DNA of 64,000 nucleotides, taken from positions 66,671 to 130,670 of the forward strand of contig JACQAP010000013.1 in assembly GCA_016194905.1 (NCBI GenBank), given 5' to 3'. A model generated the notes under the pieces. That model worked only from the letters and a program-made list of their open reading frames with translations, was not told the DNA's origin and made no database searches. Both the position numbers and the translations under genes were made by a program. The stretch's first letter is position 1, and each line of letters opens with the position of its first letter. Positions 3,039-11,885 of the stretch are shown here, piece by piece. The stretch comes from Betaproteobacteria bacterium. Lineage in GTDB: Bacteria > Pseudomonadota > Gammaproteobacteria > Burkholderiales > JACQAP01.

Positions 3039-3174
3039 ATTCCATCTTTACTCCGCGCCCCTCTTTTTCGCCCGACGCCTTTAAGTTAAATCACCTGGAG
3101 CAAATCAGGTTCTGGCTTCCACTTTGTTCTCGGTATTCATGAGGTAGTGAAAATCCCGGAGTAGGATTGCATAA

Positions 3175-3191
3175 GGCGATCGTCGATCGCC
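3175..3191. repeat. 17-base palindrome GGCGATCG-T-CGATCGCC
   Basis: Perfect eight-base arms around one central base, in the 334-base gap 3039-3372 that marks the change from GC-rich housekeeping DNA to AT-richer accessory DNA. Besides this palindrome and the inverted repeat at 3290-3332, I see no gene, tRNA or clear promoter in the gap. Confidence 0.5.
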
Positions 3192-3289
3192 ATTTTGTTC
3201 TGCACCGCGGAGAGGGATGACAGTTTGCAATCGGGGCGGAGACGGTCTAAATTGGATCGGCATGCCGATTGCATTGAATCTAAATAATT

Positions 3290-3332
3290 AGACCTCCTAA
3301 GTGACAGGTTATAAAGTCTTTTAGGGAGGTCT
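3290..3332. repeat. Inverted repeat AGACCTCC..TAA / TTA..GGGAGGTCT
   Basis: Left arm 3290-3300 and right arm 3321-3332 pair over 11 bases with one bulge, separated by about 20 AT-rich bases. It ends 40 bases before the start of the accessory gene at 3373. It could be an operator, the 5' leader hairpin of that gene, or the end of a mobile segment; the sequence alone does not decide. Confidence 0.45.
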
Positions 3333-3372
3333 ACTTCACGTTTTCACCACTCCGAGGATCCGCACTTTGCAG

Positions 3373-4248
3373 ATGAAGAACCTCTTGTTCGCTCTCGGAA
3401 TTACGGTCGTCGCAGCACTAGCTGCGATCGGCGCTGGATCCGTTTCATGGGTGTTTTGGGAGGCGTGGCAAGGGTCCGACCGAGAAGCATTTCGTGCGCT
3501 GCTGGGCGCGTTCTCTGGAGCGTTCTTCGCGTTCTTGTTCGTTCGTTTCGGCGAAGGCCTCAAGCGAATTTATGAGCGCAAGGAGAAGCACCACACGTCA
3601 CTGGTCCGGTTGCAGCACTACTTCAACGACTGCCTCAACATCACTGGAGACAACATCTTTATCGTCGTCAATTTCTTGAGTGTTTTCGATGAAAAGCGGC
3701 TTCAATCGAATGACCTACCGATCTTCATCAATCGATTTCACGAGTATCCAATAGATCGGGAATTAGTTATTGGGTTAACAAACCTCGATTTTGCCAACGA
3801 CGTCTATACCCTCAACGTTGAACTTCGAAAATTGAACGACTCCTTAGTCACTATCGACCGGTCGTACGCGCGAATCGCGGAAGCATTTATATCTAAGAAG
3901 ATCGATCCGGCGATGTATGTCGCTAACATTCGCCATTCTCGGGGGCGATATGTGGAGATGCGAGAGTTCCTTCTACAAGAGAAACTGGACCTCATTCGTT
4001 TATTCGCGAGTTCTAACCTTTTAACCAAGGACGCTCCATTCCTTGTTCGAGTAATTCGTGTGCTGACGAAATCCAGCTATTCCAGCAGGTTCAAGACGGA
4101 CCTACCTACTGAAGTGAAGAGGGTTTCTGCGGAGATCGATGCAGGTGCTAAGAACAGTCGGTTAAGAATCGAAGAAGTTCAAGCACGTGCGGCCCAACCC
4201 GCCGCTTTAGGGGACGTTCCGCCCAAGGGCGTCCCGCCCTCGATCTAA
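3373..4248 (+). CDS. Hypothetical membrane protein with two N-terminal TM helices
   Basis: Not recognised. The 291-residue product has two predicted membrane helices (about residues 3-25 and 38-58) joined by a short acidic loop. A roughly 230-residue charged, mostly helical cytoplasmic region follows, and a proline-rich end. ATG 3373 is preferred to a TTG six bases upstream. Base composition is visibly poorer in GC than the genes before 3 kb, a sign of acquisition. The layout (membrane anchor plus soluble helical region) resembles small effector proteins in conflict systems, but no family motif supports that. An attC-like site overlaps its 3' end, so it may be the first of several integron cassettes. 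Confidence 0.7.
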   Translation: MKNLLFALGITVVAALAAIGAGSVSWVFWEAWQGSDREAFRALLGAFSGAFFAFLFVRFGEGLKRIYERKEKHHTSLVRLQHYFNDCLNITGDNIFIVVNFLSVFDEKRLQSNDLPIFINRFHEYPIDRELVIGLTNLDFANDVYTLNVELRKLNDSLVTIDRSYARIAEAFISKKIDPAMYVANIRHSRGRYVEMREFLLQEKLDLIRLFASSNLLTKDAPFLVRVIRVLTKSSYSSRFKTDLPTEVKRVSAEIDAGAKNSRLRIEEVQARAAQPAALGDVPPKGVPPSI

Positions 4249-4258
4249 TTGGTTGGAC
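4192..4258 (+). other. attC-like integron recombination site 1 (candidate)
   Basis: A 67-base segment begins with GCCCAAC (fits RYYYAAC) at 4192-4198 and ends with GTTGGAC (fits GTTRRRY) at 4252-4258. The two cores are complementary at six of seven bases. The middle folds on itself: GGGACG at 4211-4216 pairs with CGTCCC at 4230-4235. It overlaps the stop of the preceding gene and ends 18 bases before the next ATG, as in integron cassettes. No integrase gene is in the window. Confidence 0.4.
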
Positions 4259-4276
4259 AACTCGTGACGTCGAGAA

Positions 4277-4939
4277 ATGAGCACGAAAGAGATTCCCCCC
4301 GGAACTGCGCTTGTTAGGACTGTCGCAAGCCGCGAACTCGGAGATATCGCGTTCGATTCGGCCGAGGTTGCTCTCGACAGCGTTTTAACCGAAGGGGTCC
4401 TCAGAGAGCTTCCCGTCGTCGGCATACTTGTTAAGCTTGCGAAGGCGGGCCAATCAGTTGCGGAAGAACTCTTCCTGAGGAAACTTCTTCGTTTCCTGCT
4501 CGAGCTTAGGAAAGTTCCCGTCGAAGAAAGAGCGAAGCTCTTGGCGAGACACCCTGACGGTACGGAAGAACAGAGTGGTCTGGGTGAAAATCTGTTGTTG
4601 GCGCTGGAACGCCTCGACAATATACATAAGCCAGCCCTGCTAGCACGCTTTTTCGCAGCGTATATTCGGGAGCAAGTGGACTATTCAACCTTCTCTCGCC
4701 TTGCCCAAGCACTGCAGCGCCTCAACTTTTCGCTGATACCGCACGTGCGTTGGTTCTATACGCGCGAAGGTCCGATGATGGACATTACTGAGGACATTGA
4801 GCACGAACTCAGTTTGGCCGGATTACTAACGGTGAGTTTGGAGGGCTCTGGGTCGGTCGGCGGGGGTGCAGGTTATCGCTATTCTCCAATCGGGAAGCTT
4901 TTTCTCGAAATAGGATATGGTGTACATGTCCGTCAATGA
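4277..4939 (+). CDS. Hypothetical protein, possible integron gene cassette
   Basis: A 220-residue soluble protein I do not recognise. The N-terminal half has a hydrophobic, amphipathic helical stretch (VLRELPVVGILVKLAKAGQS). It is followed by a charged region and a small C-terminal part with YRYSPIGKLFLEIGYG, which resembles a winged-helix ending. This arrangement is loosely reminiscent of Abi-alpha/DUF4393-type proteins, but I cannot confirm membership. It starts 18 bases after one attC-like core, and its stop codon is three bases before the next. That is the exact layout of a single-gene integron cassette. Base composition is lower in GC than the core genome here. Confidence 0.65.
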   Translation: MSTKEIPPGTALVRTVASRELGDIAFDSAEVALDSVLTEGVLRELPVVGILVKLAKAGQSVAEELFLRKLLRFLLELRKVPVEERAKLLARHPDGTEEQSGLGENLLLALERLDNIHKPALLARFFAAYIREQVDYSTFSRLAQALQRLNFSLIPHVRWFYTREGPMMDITEDIEHELSLAGLLTVSLEGSGSVGGGAGYRYSPIGKLFLEIGYGVHVRQ

Positions 4940-4942
4940 GTG

Positions 4943-5010
4943 GTCCAACAAGTGCGCCAACCGGACACGCAAACAGCGGCGCTACACTTGCTTTTGCATG
5001 CGAGTTAGGC
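4943..5010 (+). other. attC-like integron recombination site 2 (candidate)
   Basis: A 68-base segment with GTCCAAC (RYYYAAC) at 4943-4949 and GTTAGGC (GTTRRRY) at 5004-5010, which can pair with each other (two G-T type mismatches). It follows the stop of the upstream gene by three bases. Size and position match attC sites, though the inner L boxes are weak. Together with site 1 it brackets the gene at 4277-4939. Confidence 0.45.
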
Positions 5011-5053
5011 CCAAGTGTTATGTCTCCTCCATCGGCCGATAAGCGCTTAACGA

Positions 5054-6103
5054 ATGAACCAGCTCCTGGCAGCACTGCCCGGGTACTATGATGCAATTGT
5101 CGAAGACCTCGCGCGCGCGGACTGGCTGGTTCACAACTTCCGCAAACCGAATCCAGAAGGTCTCTACAATCCTGCAAACTACCTCCACAACAGGGAATTC
5201 GACGAAACCGAATACCGAGCCCTAATCGACCTCAACGTACTTCAGTTCATTGTCAATTGTCTGAAAAAGGGCAAACCGCACCAGAACTACCGAACCGCTT
5301 GCGCCCTTCTCGTTTTTTGTCGCCTGAGTGACATCCAGATAGAGCCGGCCCTGGCAGTCTATGAAAGGATCAACTACAACGCTGAGAACCTGGAGGAGGC
5401 ACTCACAGAGGTCCAACTATTGCGATCGCTCGACAACGCAGATGTAGACTACCTAGCGCAGTATGCTCTGGGCGTCGTGGATAACCTTCTAGACATTGAT
5501 CGTGTGCACGTCGAGCGAGAATCGCTGGCCGCAGGGCTTACACAATATAGGAGGTTGACACACTGGGACTCAGTTTACCTATTAGTTCTCGGGGCGATAT
5601 CGGTGTACTGGGACGCCCACATCCCACAAAATCGGAAACTAGAAAATTATGTAGAGTGGATGTTGCGTGAGTACCGCTTATCGTTGCCGTGTGTAGTCTA
5701 CGCAGTACGTCTTTTCGGCCAGAATCCCATGCCGAAGATGATGAAGTTCCGTCCAGACCGGCCCGAACACTTGAGACGTATCGCAGTTTTCAATATGACG
5801 TGGGACCTGTTTCACGTCGATCACTACTTCAAAATCTGGACTAATCCGCAAGAGAAATGGGAGGCGCTCTTCTTTACGCACGACCGAGTGTTGAAATCGG
5901 TAATGCGATTGGCTATCTCCGTTCAATATGCTGGCACCTTGGATCCAGTTCTTCAGTACCTCAGTGAACGACAGGCTGCAGCCTTGCGCTCGCTCATCGA
6001 CACTCGCAGTGAGCGAACTGACCGTGTGTACGGTACGGATGCATGGACCCCTGAGCACAGATCTCGTGGTATCGCAGCAATCGAGGCTGCGCTGTTTCAA
6101 TGA
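5054..6103 (+). CDS. Hypothetical protein (349 aa)
   Basis: Not recognised. A soluble 349-residue protein of mixed composition with no signal peptide and no membrane helix. Acidic motifs are spread along it: ALIDLNVLQFIV near residue 60, LLDIDRVHVERE near 150 and VFNMTWDLFHVDHYF near 260. Their spacing faintly recalls PIN-like nucleases, where separated aspartates bind metal, but the similarity is too weak to name a function. The ATG lies 43 bases after the second attC-like site. No third attC-like site follows its stop, so if this was a cassette array it has decayed or ended here. Codon use is AT-richer than the flanks. Confidence 0.65.
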   Translation: MNQLLAALPGYYDAIVEDLARADWLVHNFRKPNPEGLYNPANYLHNREFDETEYRALIDLNVLQFIVNCLKKGKPHQNYRTACALLVFCRLSDIQIEPALAVYERINYNAENLEEALTEVQLLRSLDNADVDYLAQYALGVVDNLLDIDRVHVERESLAAGLTQYRRLTHWDSVYLLVLGAISVYWDAHIPQNRKLENYVEWMLREYRLSLPCVVYAVRLFGQNPMPKMMKFRPDRPEHLRRIAVFNMTWDLFHVDHYFKIWTNPQEKWEALFFTHDRVLKSVMRLAISVQYAGTLDPVLQYLSERQAAALRSLIDTRSERTDRVYGTDAWTPEHRSRGIAAIEAALFQ

Positions 6104-6164
6104 CCGCGGACCAAGTGAAACATAACAGAATCTTTCCTCTGCAAACAAGTATCAGCTCATCAGT

Positions 6165-6245
6165 TCTTTTTCCTCCGCGCCCTCTCTTGCTTTTCCTCTG
6201 CGTCCTAAACGGGTACTCCGACGTGCCAGGCGGCACGTAGGGTAT
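6165..6245 (-). repeat. GGAGTACCC hairpin repeat copy 3 with adjoining purine-rich repeats
   Basis: Read on the minus strand, 6245-6204 gives ATACCCT, a hairpin with ACGTGCC and GGCACGT arms, then GGAGTACCC and TTTAGG. This matches the ends of the elements at 548 and 22443 but has a different centre. Purine-rich repeats of the type GCAGAGGAAAAGC continue to about 6165. It interrupts the block shared with 10139-10240. Confidence 0.6.
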
Positions 6246-6280
6246 CTGCGTCAACGCTCCGGTCCCTGGCCGGCTAACAG

Positions 6281-6705
6281 TCACCAGGTATATCGAACCG
6301 TATAGCGCACCACCGCCTCCCCATCGGCAGCGACCGTCACCGGAAAGTGAATCGTGCGCGAGTCCTGTTTCTCGTACGACTGGTTCATCTGCGTGATCTT
6401 CCAGTTCGTCCAGCGGTAGAGGTTTTCCTTTACGATCACCCGCACCGGTTCGTCCTTGCGGTTGTGGATCTTGACCTCGATCTCCTCGGTCATGGTGTTA
6501 CGGTTGGTGTCGACTTTGAAATCCACCTGGCGACGCTCGCCCACAACGTCGAAGGCGCTGCCGAGTTTGAGCTGCACGGTTTCGTTCTTCGGCGTGTGAT
6601 CGATGCGATCTTCCCCGATGAACTCCAGGCTGCCATCCGCGCTGTCGAGCTTGGCTACTCTTATCCGACCCGACGGCAGTGGCACGCCCATGCCGTCCGC
6701 GGTGG
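6281..6705 (-). pseudogene. Truncated DUF4139 gene copy (3' end only)
   Basis: About 425 bases match the last quarter of the intact DUF4139 gene at 10224-11738, protein-to-protein nearly identical from DGMGVPLPSGR to the common end VRYTW. Upstream of about 6705 the similarity stops abruptly within the codons after GMGVPLPSGR's DG, and the frame then runs into unrelated sequence. About three quarters of the gene is missing, so it should not give a working protein. The downstream flank is also shared with the intact copy (CTGCGTCAACGCT, CCCTGGCC). This copy and the intact one flank the caspase operon. Confidence 0.85.
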
Positions 6706-6890
6706 CAGCCGCTTCCTTGCCCCATGCACCTTGCGTACAGGAATTGGGGCAGCGTTCGTGATTTATTACCCGGATCAAGATTGTCCCTTGACTCCACCGC
6801 GCTGGATGCGCCACTATTTAAGCCCTCAAGGGAAAATGGCAAATAATCTGGTTAGCCTAACCGTCGCGCGAAAATCCTTTTGACGACTTT

Positions 6891-7931
6891 ATGTGCCTGT
6901 CCTCCATTCGAAGATCGCTCTTTACGTGTTCAACGTTTGCGAACTTGATTGTAACAATCTCAATTTCGATGGTCAGTACGCTTCCGAATTCCGCATTCGC
7001 ATACGATCATAGGATTGCCTTGCTGATTGGGCTCGGAAAATATGAAAGTGGAGCAAGCAAAGGTTTATTTAGAGATCTCCCTGTTGCCGCCAACGACCTA
7101 GAGGCAGTCGCCAATGCGCTTGAGAGACTCGGGTTCGATCAGATCGAGATTTATTCGGATCTAATGCCGCCAATCGGTTCGCGGTTTGATTTTCGTAGCC
7201 TATTAATTCCCGGCGATAGTCCATCCTTGCCTATCAACTCGCTGCATGTGGATAGACTAATTAATGACAGGCTCATTGCTCTCGAGGAAACAGAGGAGAA
7301 CGATTTATTACTAATCTACTTTACCGGTCACGGTGGAATCTTCGGGAAGGCTGACCGAGTGTTAGCTGTACCAGACAGTCGGGTCAGCACCCCGAATTCC
7401 TTCGTCCAAGTAAAGCACATACTCAACATCATGGCCGACAGGGCCAATTCTACTGACAAATTTCTTGTCGTCGATGCCTGCGCCGATCAACTGAAAAATA
7501 GCGCTGAACTGCAAGGAACAAAGACGGATGAGGAACTACCGGATTACTTGTATTCAAGCAAGCTTGGTGAAATGTCATTCTTCGATCGGCATCTGGGGAT
7601 AAGCGTGTTTACGCACTATTTTGTCGAAGCGCTTGTGCGAGCTGACGAATTAGGGATTGGAGACGTAACAGGGAAGATCGAGTCACATGATATAAAGAAT
7701 TATGTTCGTCGCTACGTGCCATTGCATACAGATATGGAACAAAAGAAACCGCAACGGCCCAAGAACGTACCACTTGTCCAACACCCTTTAGGTTCGGGCA
7801 GCCAGAACTTAGTTTTGACGCAATATAAAGTTGGTACAAAATCGCCACTACCAGACTCAGAAGCGACAGCTGCTCAAAGAGAAATCTACCTGCGAAGCAT
7901 ACAAGAAACGTACTACGGAGACGCCAAATGA
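6891..7931 (+). CDS. Exported caspase-like (peptidase C14) protein
   Basis: A 346-residue caspase/metacaspase-fold cysteine protease. The catalytic dyad is clear: H147 in IYFTGHGG and C197 in FLVVDACAD, each after a hydrophobic strand as in family C14. The start of the fold, HRIALLIGLGKY at residue 40, follows a hydrophobic leader ending in NSAFA, so it is probably secreted to the periplasm. No ribosome binding site is obvious before ATG 6891. The stop overlaps the next ATG (ATGA), and two more exported proteins follow, so the three are one operon. No adaptor or sensor domain is fused. DNA is AT-richer than the flanks. Function is unknown; bacterial caspases occur in both signalling and defence. 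Confidence 0.85.
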   Translation: MCLSSIRRSLFTCSTFANLIVTISISMVSTLPNSAFAYDHRIALLIGLGKYESGASKGLFRDLPVAANDLEAVANALERLGFDQIEIYSDLMPPIGSRFDFRSLLIPGDSPSLPINSLHVDRLINDRLIALEETEENDLLLIYFTGHGGIFGKADRVLAVPDSRVSTPNSFVQVKHILNIMADRANSTDKFLVVDACADQLKNSAELQGTKTDEELPDYLYSSKLGEMSFFDRHLGISVFTHYFVEALVRADELGIGDVTGKIESHDIKNYVRRYVPLHTDMEQKKPQRPKNVPLVQHPLGSGSQNLVLTQYKVGTKSPLPDSEATAAQREIYLRSIQETYYGDAK

Positions 7932-8902
7932 ACATTGCCGGCATCACGAGTAGGCTAAGCTTAATCTGTCTTGGGGCCCTAGTCTGTGCGGTCCCGGCCT
8001 ATGTATCGGCGCAGAGCAAATCCGAAGACACGACGATTTCTCCTATATCGATGTCAGCGAATATTCCAGGCCTGGAAATTTCCCCAAATACCATCGAGCG
8101 CTGGGCGACTCAGGCAGAACTTAGTCTTCAGCAAGTTGAGAAGATGGGACTACGTCCCGGATATTATGACGAGATGGGAATTCGCAAACTTCGGAAAATT
8201 GGAGGTGATCAAGACCTTCGTCGATTTATTGAGTATTTTGACCTAGAATTTGGTAAGACTATCGACAACGTCAGCCTAGGGACTTGGGAGCGAGTGTCGA
8301 CGCTAGACGCCTTTATCGAAGATGCCGTGACCTTTGGAGACTTTGATTCAAGGCGCGAGGCAGATCTTCGCAATTCACTGCGAGACGCGGCCAACGAGAA
8401 AATAGACGATGAAACCCGGATCAAAGCGCGCTCCGTCGCTTACCGAATACTTTCCGACGCGCGCCTGGCTGCTGTGCGAAAATCCCGTGGCTACCGGCTG
8501 TTAGCGGACGTGCTAAAACGGGAACTAGAAGGCCGTGAATTCGTGAAAAACATTGGAATGATCGTCGAAATCAGAACATCTGCAAAACAACCAACGATAT
8601 CACCCGTATCCTTAGTCACTATGGAATGCGAGTCGTCGGATTCTGCGAATCGCGATCTCCCGACGTTAGTATTCACGCAACGGAAGCGTGATTGCAACGA
8701 GTTCGGCATTTGTCGCGTCGAGTCTATCGCCGAGGTTAGCAAGGGGCCTAGCTACAAGACGGTTTTTGAAGCGTTACAGATCGACGGTCGTAAGTATCTC
8801 GATGGATGCTCGCTTATTACAAAGATGTTAATAGACGGAGTGGAGATCACTAGGACACTTCCGGGATTATTCATTTCCCATACTGCGCCGCTGGTTCGAT
8901 GA
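7928..8902 (+). CDS. Exported hypothetical protein of the caspase operon
   Basis: Not recognised. A 324-residue protein with a signal peptide (hydrophobic run about residues 8-28, ending AYVSA). The body is charged and helical to about residue 210, with no known motif. The C-terminal third is beta-like and carries five cysteines (in MECESS, KRDCNEFGICRVE, DGCSL), which could form disulfides in the periplasm. It overlaps the caspase gene by ATGA and the following gene by ATGA, so translation of the three is coupled. It may be a substrate, inhibitor or partner of the caspase, but that is only inferred from position. Confidence 0.72.
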   Translation: MNIAGITSRLSLICLGALVCAVPAYVSAQSKSEDTTISPISMSANIPGLEISPNTIERWATQAELSLQQVEKMGLRPGYYDEMGIRKLRKIGGDQDLRRFIEYFDLEFGKTIDNVSLGTWERVSTLDAFIEDAVTFGDFDSRREADLRNSLRDAANEKIDDETRIKARSVAYRILSDARLAAVRKSRGYRLLADVLKRELEGREFVKNIGMIVEIRTSAKQPTISPVSLVTMECESSDSANRDLPTLVFTQRKRDCNEFGICRVESIAEVSKGPSYKTVFEALQIDGRKYLDGCSLITKMLIDGVEITRTLPGLFISHTAPLVR

Positions 8903-9918
8903 AACAATCGATACTGATTCTTTCTGCGATCGGTATTTTTCTGTTTGATGGAGCAATAGAAGCGGCGGCGGAACCTATAACCGAGACCTCAATCTGGAAA
9001 GTGAAGCTCCTGCCAGATGGAACCGGGAAATTCAAAGTCGAAGGGCCCTTTGCGATCGGAGATCCAGTACACGAAACCCTGACACTCAAAGCGCTTATTG
9101 ACGGCGGCATACTTAAACAAACCACCAAGCGGAAGGATCATGATGCTGCACAGTTTATTCGTGGTGCATTCTGGAACGATGATCCCTGCGCGCAGCTCTT
9201 TGAAGAGAACGAATTTAGTCCACTAAAACCTTCATTCGGTATTGTTTGGTATTTAGACTTTAACGATGCAAAGCAGGCCACAAGTCAGGGCACAGATTTT
9301 CAAAATCTTAAATGTCCACTTCTCGGAAGAAGTCATTTTGGCGATCTTCAGTTCCTTCACGGAATGGCTGACCGGAATGGAGTGAAAGCGACCGAAACAG
9401 CTGAACGCGTACTAGCTTGGGCCAGTGTTTCCTACAGAATTGCGATTGGTGAAATTGATGCGCACAAACCGCTAGAGACAGATGCGACGGCAAAAGCCTT
9501 ACTGAATTCAATTGCTAATCAGAATGCATTGAGTTTGATGCGCGCTAAGACAGCGACCGATACCCAAGCTCGCGCTCTAGGTAGCTTTTTACACATGATT
9601 CAGGATTCCTATGCTCACGGCCACGTAACTCGGGCGACCGCATACGAGCCTCGCTTAGGCGCCATTACGCAATTTCTTTCTTACGTTGACCAGAACTCGG
9701 ATAAGCACGCCCATGACGATTCATGGCGTGATGGAACCAACGATCTTGAACGAACACTTAACATTCCGGGCGCCCGGGATGCTCTTTCTATCAGCACCGA
9801 AATTGTGAAGCTCTACAAATCGCGAGCGAGTTGGGCCAATGTCGAGGAATACCTGAGAAACGGGCCGCTGTACGTGATGCCTGACGCTCAAGATTCGGGC
9901 CCGGGCAATTATCAGTGA
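8899..9918 (+). CDS. Exported zinc phospholipase C / P1-nuclease-like protein
   Basis: A 339-residue protein with a signal peptide (cleavage near residue 24, EAAAE). Candidate metal ligands follow the pattern of the phospholipase C/S1-P1 nuclease fold: H58 in PVHETL, WNDDP at 92-96, H146, D149 and H154 in HFGDLQFLH, then FLHMIQDSYAHGH with H232, D236, H240 and H242, and a HAHDD at 270-274. Such enzymes are trinuclear-zinc phosphodiesterases acting on phospholipids or nucleic acids. The match is at the level of motif and helical layout, so the substrate is open. It is the last gene of the overlapping caspase operon. About 300 bases without a gene follow before the DUF4139 gene. Confidence 0.7.
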   Translation: MKQSILILSAIGIFLFDGAIEAAAEPITETSIWKVKLLPDGTGKFKVEGPFAIGDPVHETLTLKALIDGGILKQTTKRKDHDAAQFIRGAFWNDDPCAQLFEENEFSPLKPSFGIVWYLDFNDAKQATSQGTDFQNLKCPLLGRSHFGDLQFLHGMADRNGVKATETAERVLAWASVSYRIAIGEIDAHKPLETDATAKALLNSIANQNALSLMRAKTATDTQARALGSFLHMIQDSYAHGHVTRATAYEPRLGAITQFLSYVDQNSDKHAHDDSWRDGTNDLERTLNIPGARDALSISTEIVKLYKSRASWANVEEYLRNGPLYVMPDAQDSGPGNYQ

Positions 9919-10223
9919 ACCGACGAAAAAGTGAACTTTCCTAGTAATACGATGGCCGCAGTCCAAAGTTTCTAATTGGTTGCTTCAGTAAAGTGGGCGC
10001 ACCCCTCAAGGGTCCCCCATAAGGTGGTATTAAACAGAAGGTATTGGAATGAATCGACGTTCCTGAATGCCGGACTTCGGCCGGCCCGTCTATGTTCGGC
10101 AGTCAATACCTCACGATCCGCAACTAACTCAAATGCTACCCTTATGCTTTCCTGTGCGTCCTTTCTTTTCCCTTGCGAACTTTGCGTCAACGCTCTTAGT
10201 GCCGGCCCCTGGCCAGCTACCCA
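9919..10223. other. Gene-free space after the caspase operon
   Basis: This 305-base stretch separates the caspase operon from the convergent DUF4139 gene. It holds CCCCTCAAGGG-type short palindromes near 9998, a GGTATT/AATACC pair about 60 bases apart, and from about 10139 a block also found downstream of the truncated DUF4139 copy (CTTTCCTGTGCGTCC, TTTGCGTCAACGCT). No gene or strong terminator was seen. Confidence 0.5.
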
Positions 10224-10640
10224 TTACCACGTATACCGAACCGTATAGTGCACCACCGCTTCCCCGTCCGCCGCGACAGTGATAGGAAAGTGAATCGTGC
10301 GCGAATCCTGCTTCTCATAAGCCTGGTTCGCCTGCGTAATCTTCCAGTTAGTCCAGCGGTAGAGGTTTTCCTTGACGATTACCCGCACCGGTTCGTCCTT
10401 CCGGTTGCGGATCTTGACCTCGATCTCCTCGGTCATGGTATTGCGGTTCGAGTCGACCTTGAAATCGACCTGCCGGCGCTCGCCCACTACATCGAAGGCG
10501 CTGCCGAGTTTCAGTTGTACCGTTTCATTCTTCGGCGTGTGATCGATGCGATCTTCCCCGATGAACTCCAGGCTGCCATCCGCGCCGTCGAGCTTGGCGA
10601 CGCGCACCCGGCCGGATGGCAGCGGCACGCCCATGCCGTC
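10183..10640. repeat. Direct-repeat partner of 6245-6705 (DUF4139 3' end and flank)
   Basis: This block, covering the 3' end of the intact DUF4139 gene and its downstream flank, is repeated in the same orientation at about 6245-6705. The two copies differ by scattered, mostly synonymous substitutions, so the duplication is not recent. Together they bracket the caspase operon. Confidence 0.75.
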
Positions 10641-11738
10641 TTCGGTGCGATTCTTGAACGACAAATAGGTGTCGACTTTCTTGTTGCCGGTAATGCCGTA
10701 GTTGCGGTCGGTCATCGGCCCGCCGCCATACCATTGCCCGGCCTGGCCGTAGTACACGAGCGTCTTTTCGCAGGCCACTCCCGCCACCTTGGGAAACAAT
10801 TCGATCTGCTTGGTGGAATTGTCCGGTAGCGAACTCGGTCGCCCCAGGGTATAGAGGTGATACTCGAAGAAGGATTTTTCTTCGAATCCGCGCGCCTCGT
10901 CGGCCATCTCGCTCCGCATCGCCTTTGCCGCCATCGGCACCGCCTGCCCGGTGTGTTCGGCCCGATGCACGTCACCTGCGACGAGTTTTATTTTCGCGTC
11001 GGGATAACTGCCGCCCGATTGATTGAGGATGCTGACCCAGGCGCCGATGTCCACCTTGCAGGAGTTGGCATCCTTGCCTTCGGCAAAGGTCAGGTTGTAG
11101 TCCGCCCACCAGGTGATGCCGGTGGTTTGATAAGCAACGCGTGTCTTGTGCGTTCCGGCCTTGCCGGCAATCACGTCCCATACCAGAGTCGGCCGTGTAA
11201 TCAGTCCGCCGGGAAGTGAAGGCAGTTTCACGCCGGCATTGTAAGGCAGCGTGCGCACCGACCCGTCCGCCTCCCGGATGACCATGCCGCCCTGAGTCGA
11301 GAGCAGCTTGCCTTCCAGCGTCTCGATCCGGTTGCCGACCATGCGCTCGACCGCGATGTCGCGATCGATGAAGCGCGTCAGCAGCTTTTCCGGACTCACC
11401 AGGTCGAACTGAAAGTTCTGCTCCATCACGCGCGTGCCAATGGGGTCGGTCAGCGAGGAAAACGACACGGTGGTCGGGTCGATGAACCCGGCGACATCGG
11501 TGAAGCGAACCGTATTGCGGCCGGGGTTCAGCGCGATTTCGCGCTCGTGACGAACGGTCGCGTAGCCGGGTAGACTGTTGCCGCCACCTCCGTTTCGATA
11601 CTGGTCCGGCGATATCGAGCCCGGCGTCATGGTGCTGTAGATCGTAATGGCGTGGGTCCCTTCGTCCGCGGCAAAGGCGGCGAGCGAAGCGGTCAGAGTC
11701 AGCATGGCAAACGGGGCGCGCAGACGGCGGGAAAACAT
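10224..11738 (-). CDS. DUF4139 domain-containing exported protein
   Basis: A 504-residue protein with a signal peptide (MFSRRLRAPFAML.., cleavage near SLAAFA). The N-terminal part, EREIALNPGRNTVRFTDVAGFIDPTTVSF, and the beta-rich C-terminal domain, WTNWKITQANQAYEKQDSRT, fit the DUF4139 family of secreted or periplasmic beta proteins, whose function is unknown. ATG 11738 is chosen because the signal peptide begins there; an in-frame ATG at 11810 would add 24 non-hydrophobic residues. The 3' quarter is duplicated at 6281-6705. It is convergent with the caspase operon. Confidence 0.85.
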   Translation of the reverse strand: MFSRRLRAPFAMLTLTASLAAFAADEGTHAITIYSTMTPGSISPDQYRNGGGGNSLPGYATVRHEREIALNPGRNTVRFTDVAGFIDPTTVSFSSLTDPIGTRVMEQNFQFDLVSPEKLLTRFIDRDIAVERMVGNRIETLEGKLLSTQGGMVIREADGSVRTLPYNAGVKLPSLPGGLITRPTLVWDVIAGKAGTHKTRVAYQTTGITWWADYNLTFAEGKDANSCKVDIGAWVSILNQSGGSYPDAKIKLVAGDVHRAEHTGQAVPMAAKAMRSEMADEARGFEEKSFFEYHLYTLGRPSSLPDNSTKQIELFPKVAGVACEKTLVYYGQAGQWYGGGPMTDRNYGITGNKKVDTYLSFKNRTEDGMGVPLPSGRVRVAKLDGADGSLEFIGEDRIDHTPKNETVQLKLGSAFDVVGERRQVDFKVDSNRNTMTEEIEVKIRNRKDEPVRVIVKENLYRWTNWKITQANQAYEKQDSRTIHFPITVAADGEAVVHYTVRYTW

Positions 11739-11885
11739 GAGCGTTCCTTTCCGGTTGAGTGGGTTGCCCTCCTGTAAACGGGCGTTGTCCGGAAACGGGG
11801 TTAAGCGCAAAGCGAAATCCGGCGAAATCCTTCGACTGTCCGCCCGCTGGTATGACTGTTTTATTGGATTGCTTCAGCGCACGGG

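What the first reader, a model, noticed from the sequence alone, without database searches (positions are those of the whole stretch)
6891..9918. Three-gene exported caspase operon: protease, unknown protein and PLC/P1-like enzyme
All three products have signal peptides, and all junctions are 4-base ATGA overlaps, so they are made together and act outside the cytoplasm. The caspase dyad (H147, C197) is intact, and the third protein keeps clusters of His/Asp and WNDDP. A periplasmic caspase possibly activating, or activated by, a lipase or nuclease is not a system I know; it could be defence, contact-killing or self-lysis. This is the best candidate for an undescribed system here.
Basis: partly seen in the sequence, partly recalled or inferred. 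Interest (0 to 1): 0.8.

Follow-up and report, generated by a model that had tools for sequence, protein, structure and literature searches.

The report
Exported caspase with latent phospholipase-like enzyme
A bacterium carries a three-gene cassette whose exported caspase-type protease probably switches on a dormant membrane-attacking enzyme by trimming its front end, a relative of the protease-triggered cell-death systems bacteria use against viruses but built outside the cytoplasm.

Summary
The operon is real: 6891-7931 exported caspase (C14, H147/C197 intact), 7928-8902 exported orphan, 8899-9918 exported zinc PLC/P1-like enzyme, two ATGA overlaps. The exact trio was found nowhere else, but the third protein's clade recurs beside peptidases of different families: caspase here; caspase + two subtilases + a gasdermin in a Myxococcales locus; matrixin + subtilase + trypsin in another; a subtilase-like protein lacking its catalytic Ser in a third. 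The PLC-like protein has an invariant PLC/P1-type ligand set (H58, D94, H146, HxxxDx5H 232-242, HxxxD 270-274). Lone homologues expose an aromatic residue at the signal-peptidase site, as PLC/P1 enzymes need (N-terminal residue binds metal). The protease-linked clade does not; it has an aromatic exactly 13 residues before the first His, after Lys in three of four. I infer a zymogen that the caspase cuts (K44|F45) to release a membrane-damaging phospholipase: gasdermin/Canu-like logic, moved to the envelope. Cleavage, lipase activity, P2's role and purpose (self-lysis defence versus secreted weapon) are untested. Fold search and curated Pfam cut-off did not confirm PLC/P1 membership. New variant of a known kind.

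The parts
6891..7931 (+). P1: exported caspase-family protease (Peptidase_C14), 346 aa; catalytic H147 (7329-7331) and C197 (7479-7481)
   Evidence: PADLOC 'caspase' profile E 3.8e-5; NCBIfam caspase_w_EACC1 E 8.8e-13, below cut-off
7928..8902 (+). P2: exported orphan, 324 aa, helical N-terminal part and a C-terminal part with four Cys; proposed partner/regulator of P1 or restraint of P3
   Evidence: no family, no relative in 150 related genomes, plasmids or viral contigs; single-sequence model unusable (pLDDT 37)
8899..9918 (+). P3: exported zinc-dependent PLC/P1-like enzyme, 339 aa, proposed zymogen
   Evidence: model pLDDT 80, pTM 0.80, mostly alpha-helical
9028..9033 (+). K44|F45 of P3: proposed activating cut; F45 lies 13 residues before H58
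   Evidence: column K|F here, K|Y in L092 and G018, L|Y in L012; 8 of 63 lone homologues have an aromatic there
9070..9072 (+). H58, first metal-ligand-type residue of P3 (VHE motif)
   Evidence: invariant in 40 homologues
9592..9624 (+). P3 H232-x3-D236-x5-H242, the PLC/P1 HxxxDxxxxxH motif; further invariant D94, H146, H154, H270, D274
6259..6704 (.). Left copy of a 446-bp direct repeat: truncated 3' end of a DUF4139 gene (ORF 6281-6814, - strand)
   Evidence: 87% identical to 10202-10647; DUF4139 profile, sub-threshold for this fragment
10202..10647 (.). Right copy of the repeat, 3' end of the intact DUF4139 gene (10224-11810, - strand)

Best explanation
A horizontally acquired, fully exported protease-zymogen module. 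P3 is a zinc-dependent phospholipase-C/P1-like enzyme that is exported with a short N-terminal pro-segment, so that the aromatic N-terminal residue which completes the metal site in this superfamily is not free. On an envelope signal the caspase P1, held or helped by its co-translated partner P2, cuts P3 (most likely K44|F45) and the mature enzyme hydrolyses phospholipids of the cell's own envelope, killing or lysing the cell: the logic of gasdermin and Canu systems, placed outside the cytoplasm. Shown: gene structure, caspase dyad, conserved ligand pattern, association of P3's clade with unrelated peptidases and with a gasdermin. Inferred: zymogen state, cut site, lipase activity, trigger, P2's role, and that the target is the producer itself.
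For: Operon and dyad. P3's clade recurs with peptidases: Myxococcales L012 caspase/S8/gasdermin/S8/PLC-like; G635/L092 PLC-like/M10-like/S8/trypsin, contiguous and exported; G018/L097 PLC-like + S8-TPR with the same ATGA overlap. 4 of 6 clade members with visible context, against 2 of 63 lone relatives, have a peptidase within about 1 kb or in the same run of genes. Tree: clade 99/92, window + L012 + L092 + L013 99/85. Lone homologues put F/Y/W at the predicted mature N-terminus: 48 of 66 by a simple automatic rule, most of the rest when the next small-residue site is taken. PMC10576769: in Listeria PC-PLC the N-terminal W1 backbone binds the metal, one extra residue abolishes activity, only W1F is tolerated, and a protease (Mpl) removes the pro-segment. 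The clade has instead an aromatic 13 residues before H58 (4 of 4 protease-linked members; 8 of 63 lone), preceded by K, K, K or L; bacterial gasdermin caspases cut after Leu or Arg, other distant caspases after Lys/Arg (PMC9612521).
Against: The exact trio has no second example, so co-function of P2 is unsupported. The G018 S8 domain lacks its catalytic Ser region. PLC/P1 assignment misses the Pfam cut-off, profile-profile comparison is not significant and Foldseek found no PLC/P1 match. W33 is a rival mature N-terminus. The N-terminal region has low model confidence. No known defence gene adjoins the operon.
Confidence: 0.45

Rival explanations
1. Secreted exoenzyme or weapon: the caspase matures a phospholipase that leaves the cell and attacks lipids of other organisms (prey, competitor, host) or scavenges phosphate, as Mpl matures PC-PLC in Listeria. 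P2 would be a chaperone, secretion partner or self-protection protein.
For: All three are exported; lone relatives are exported enzymes in many Burkholderiales, and related domains are T6SS (DUF4280, L007), eCIS (L011) and LysM-linked cargo. Two of those loci have small membrane proteins downstream, as immunity proteins would be.
Against: No delivery domain on P3 and no small membrane protein downstream of it; one clade member lies in a gasdermin locus.
Confidence: 0.3
2. The three genes are co-transcribed but P1 does not act on P3; an exported caspase and an independent lipase or nuclease happen to share an operon, and P3 is active on export.
For: P1 and P2 were found with P3 only here; most relatives of P3 are lone.
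Against: Overlapping genes; repeated peptidase neighbours of different families in the same small clade; altered N-terminus.
Confidence: 0.2
3. P3 is an S1/P1-type nuclease or another phosphoesterase, not a phospholipase; the module degrades periplasmic nucleic acid such as entering phage DNA. (This can hold together with the zymogen mechanism.)
For: PLC and P1 families share the same metal ligands; the best local profile match also falls on the P1 HxxxDxxxxxH motif.
Against: The only Pfam family hit by several members (8 of 40) is Zn_dep_PLPC, none hit S1-P1_nuclease; a gasdermin neighbour and membrane-protein neighbours point to membranes.
Confidence: 0.15

Closest known systems
Canu (CanABC) caspase-nuclease antiphage system, PMC12799240
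   Same: Three genes in the order caspase, partner, pro-effector; a caspase activates a latent hydrolase; effector relatives pair with several protease families
   Different: Effector here is PLC/P1-like, not an MBL-fold nuclease; all three are exported; no defence activity shown; Ig-like domain of CanA not looked for by structure
Bacterial gasdermin (bGSDM) operons and CARD-NLR variants with phospholipase effectors, PMC9612521, PMC13236601
   Same: Caspase/subtilase/trypsin next to a membrane-attacking effector; a clade relative of P3 sits inside such a locus (L012); phospholipases are reported as alternative effectors
   Different: No gasdermin, NLR or CARD protein found in the operon; exported; the type of phospholipase in the published systems could not be checked here
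Listeria Mpl/PC-PLC zymogen activation, PMC10576769
   Same: Secreted zinc PLC kept latent by an N-terminal pro-segment that a linked protease removes
   Different: Different protease class, very distant enzyme sequence, no evidence of a role in a host
System 3 of Kaur et al. 2020 (trypsin/S8 + NucA), PMC7159879
   Same: Several peptidases coupled to a hydrolytic effector, predicted proteolytic cascade
   Different: Effector is a NucA nuclease; no caspase-PLC version described in the parts read

Membership tests
Peptidase C14 (caspase family) | Pfam profile above curated cut-off | tested here: met
   44 bits, cut-off 21.4
Peptidase C14 (caspase family) | His/Cys catalytic dyad | tested here: met
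   H147 in GHGG, C197 in DAC; activity not tested
Zinc PLC / P1 nuclease superfamily | Pfam PF00882 or PF02265 above cut-off | tested here: not met
   18.3 bits, cut-off 26.8; 8 of 40 relatives match PF00882 weakly, no S1-P1 hit
Zinc PLC / P1 nuclease superfamily | Ordered metal ligands H ... WxD ... SH ... HxxxDx5H ... HxxxD/E | tested here: met
   invariant in 40 sequences; same order and motif in P1 homologues fetched here
Zinc PLC / P1 nuclease superfamily | PLC/P1 fold or significant profile-profile match | tested here: inconclusive
   Foldseek no hit below E 0.8, superpositions implausible; hhalign not significant, best segment is the HxxxDx5H motif
Zinc PLC / P1 nuclease superfamily | Aromatic mature N-terminus in close family | tested here: met
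   48 of 66 lone homologues by automatic rule; P1 homologues show A|W likewise; P3 itself has none at its export-signal site
Bacterial gasdermin system | A gasdermin gene | tested here: not met
   no gasdermin match for P1-P3 or the three ORFs to the left
Canu | MBL-fold nuclease as third gene | tested here: not met
   no MBL match; different conserved motifs
Canu | Caspase plus partner activating a pro-effector | not testable with these tools
   needs biochemistry; gene order alone fits
Polymorphic/T6SS/eCIS toxin | Delivery domain and downstream immunity gene | tested here: not met
   P3 is a signal peptide plus one domain; next gene is a convergent DUF4139 gene

The most novel reading that the evidence does not exclude
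A wholly extracytoplasmic caspase death module in which proteolysis creates the metal-binding N-terminal residue of a PLC/P1-type enzyme, a way of arming a bacterial immune effector that I found no description of, with interchangeable proteases (caspase, subtilase, matrixin, trypsin) and a shared history with gasdermin operons.
Probability: 0.3. Interest if true: 0.85.

Novelty: new variant of a known kind. Interest (0 to 1): 0.6.

Why it matters
The bacterial caspase systems in the papers read (gasdermin, Canu, CRISPR and Thoeris caspases) act on infections inside the cell. An exported caspase with a latent phospholipase-like effector would extend protease-triggered cell death to the envelope, give a simple sequence rule (free versus masked N-terminal aromatic) for telling armed from constitutive PLC/P1 enzymes, and make a large uncharacterised family of exported enzymes testable.

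Tried and rejected
P2 as a conserved partner: no homologue in 150 relatives, plasmids, viral contigs or 63 P3 loci. P2 as a gasdermin: no profile or pairwise match. P2 structure from a single sequence: unusable. Phage origin of P3: no phage record; only one distant relative among viral contigs. Fold search of P3 against PDB and viral models: no usable match. Profile-profile test against PF00882 and PF02265 sets: first attempt badly set up, repeat not significant. 'All P3 relatives come with proteases': rejected; only its own clade does, and 2 of 63 lone relatives also have an S8 neighbour. Plasmid caspases as P1 relatives: one weak Enterococcus hit.

Full report
What is there. Three overlapping genes on the + strand (6891-7931, 7928-8902, 8899-9918) are joined by two ATGA overlaps and all start with export signals. 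P1 is a caspase-family protease above the Pfam cut-off with H147 and C197 in place. P2 matches nothing. P3 is a sub-threshold match to zinc-dependent phospholipase C.

Setting. The operon lies in a low-GC stretch (about 0.48 against 0.62 for the neighbouring core) at a spot flanked by a 446-bp direct repeat (6259-6704 and 10202-10647, 87%), the 3' end of a DUF4139 gene. Of three same-genus genomes, G001 and G002 carry the DUF4139 gene and the glutaminyl-tRNA synthetase gene beyond it but no part of 6891-9918 at that place, so the operon was gained here or lost there; G002 also shows repeat remnants at this site. From shared neighbours, G018's genus appears to be Nitrosomonas and the window's order Burkholderiales in the GTDB sense; this is inference.

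Relatives of P3. A scan of 85,000 species for the motif SHFG[DK]LQ[FH] gave 63 loci; searches of whole genomes added more. Nearly all are lone exported enzymes of Burkholderiales and relatives. Others are cargo domains: behind DUF4280 in a Tenacibaculum T6SS locus, behind an eCIS core domain in Fulvivirga, behind LysM or lysozyme domains. A tree places P3 in a seven-member clade (99/92) with L012, L013, L092, G018, L011 and L093; window, L012, L013 and L092 form a subclade (99/85).

Peptidase neighbours. In that clade four of six members with visible context have peptidase genes in the same gene run: caspase here; caspase, S8, gasdermin, S8, PLC-like in L012 (gasdermin 149.9 bits, cut-off 100; caspase matches PADLOC's caspase model at 3.7e-72); PLC-like, M10-like, S8, trypsin in L092; PLC-like and S8-TPR in G018, though that S8 lacks the Ser motif. 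The S8 protein of L092 also carries a decayed copy of the M10 domain. L013 is cut by a contig end; L011 carries an eCIS core domain with an HELAH motif in the same chain; L093 has no peptidase. Among 63 lone relatives two have an S8 gene near.

Active site and N-terminus. Across 40 homologues H58, E59, W92, D94, P96, H146, H154, H232, D236, H242, R245, H270 and D274 are invariant; order and HxxxDx5H spacing are those of PLC/P1 enzymes (and general knowledge of the family). Eight of 40 members hit Zn_dep_PLPC, no other family recurs. The predicted fold is confident beyond residue 51 and mostly helical, but Foldseek and hhalign gave no significant link, so membership is likely, not proven. In Listeria PC-PLC the mature N-terminal residue W1 binds the metal through its backbone, an added residue kills activity and only Phe replaces Trp (PMC10576769). 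Lone homologues obey this: signal peptidase leaves F, Y or W first (48 of 66 by rule). The protease-linked clade does not; it has instead an aromatic 13 residues before the first His, after K, K, K or L.

Interpretation. The simplest reading is a zymogen: export alone does not free the N-terminal residue, a partner protease does. The caspase P1 is the candidate activator in the window. The gasdermin neighbour in L012, the published Canu caspase-partner-pro-nuclease operon (PMC12799240), and reports of phospholipases replacing gasdermins (PMC13236601) or lying next to them (PMC9612521) favour a cell-death role; the exported location and cargo relatives leave a secreted-weapon role open. P2 sits where CanB sits in Canu, but this is position only.

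Limits. One example of the trio; small clade; no coordinates to check the metal site in space; export signals and cleavage sites judged by simple rules; the key gasdermin papers (Wein 2025, Johnson 2022) were not held, so a published PLC of this very type cannot be excluded. A paper search for caspase, phospholipase, anti-phage, operon and periplasm together found nothing, which is weak evidence of novelty.

Noticed in passing
L012:1430-8888: Myxococcales locus with caspase, two subtilases, a gasdermin (NCBIfam 149.9 bits) and a PLC/P1-like enzyme in one run: a gasdermin operon with a second membrane-directed effector.
   Followed up: partly
L092:2130-8188 (- strand): Contiguous exported PLC-like, matrixin-like, subtilase (with a decayed matrixin-like N-terminal part) and trypsin genes, looking like a protease cascade.
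   Followed up: partly
L011:7407-9487; L095:5561-7942; L007:3810-6446: The same domain as eCIS, LysM and DUF4280/T6SS cargo; in L011 and L095 small membrane proteins follow, possibly immunity proteins.
   Followed up: partly
L014-L070 and L107-L112: A large unnamed family of lone exported PLC/P1-like enzymes in Burkholderiales and relatives with an aromatic residue at the signal-peptidase site.
   Followed up: partly
window 3057-10202: Low-GC accessory stretch absent from the corresponding place in same-genus genome G002, where other genes and DUF4139 3'-end remnants sit: an insertion hot spot.
   Followed up: partly
window 3367-4248, 4277-4939, 5054-6103: Three + strand ORFs without recognised family directly left of the repeat; weak AbiJ_NTD5 hint only for the third.
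   Followed up: partly
L033:5417-7750: Subtilase gene directly upstream (65 bp) of a lone-type PLC homologue in Oxalicibacterium.
   Followed up: partly
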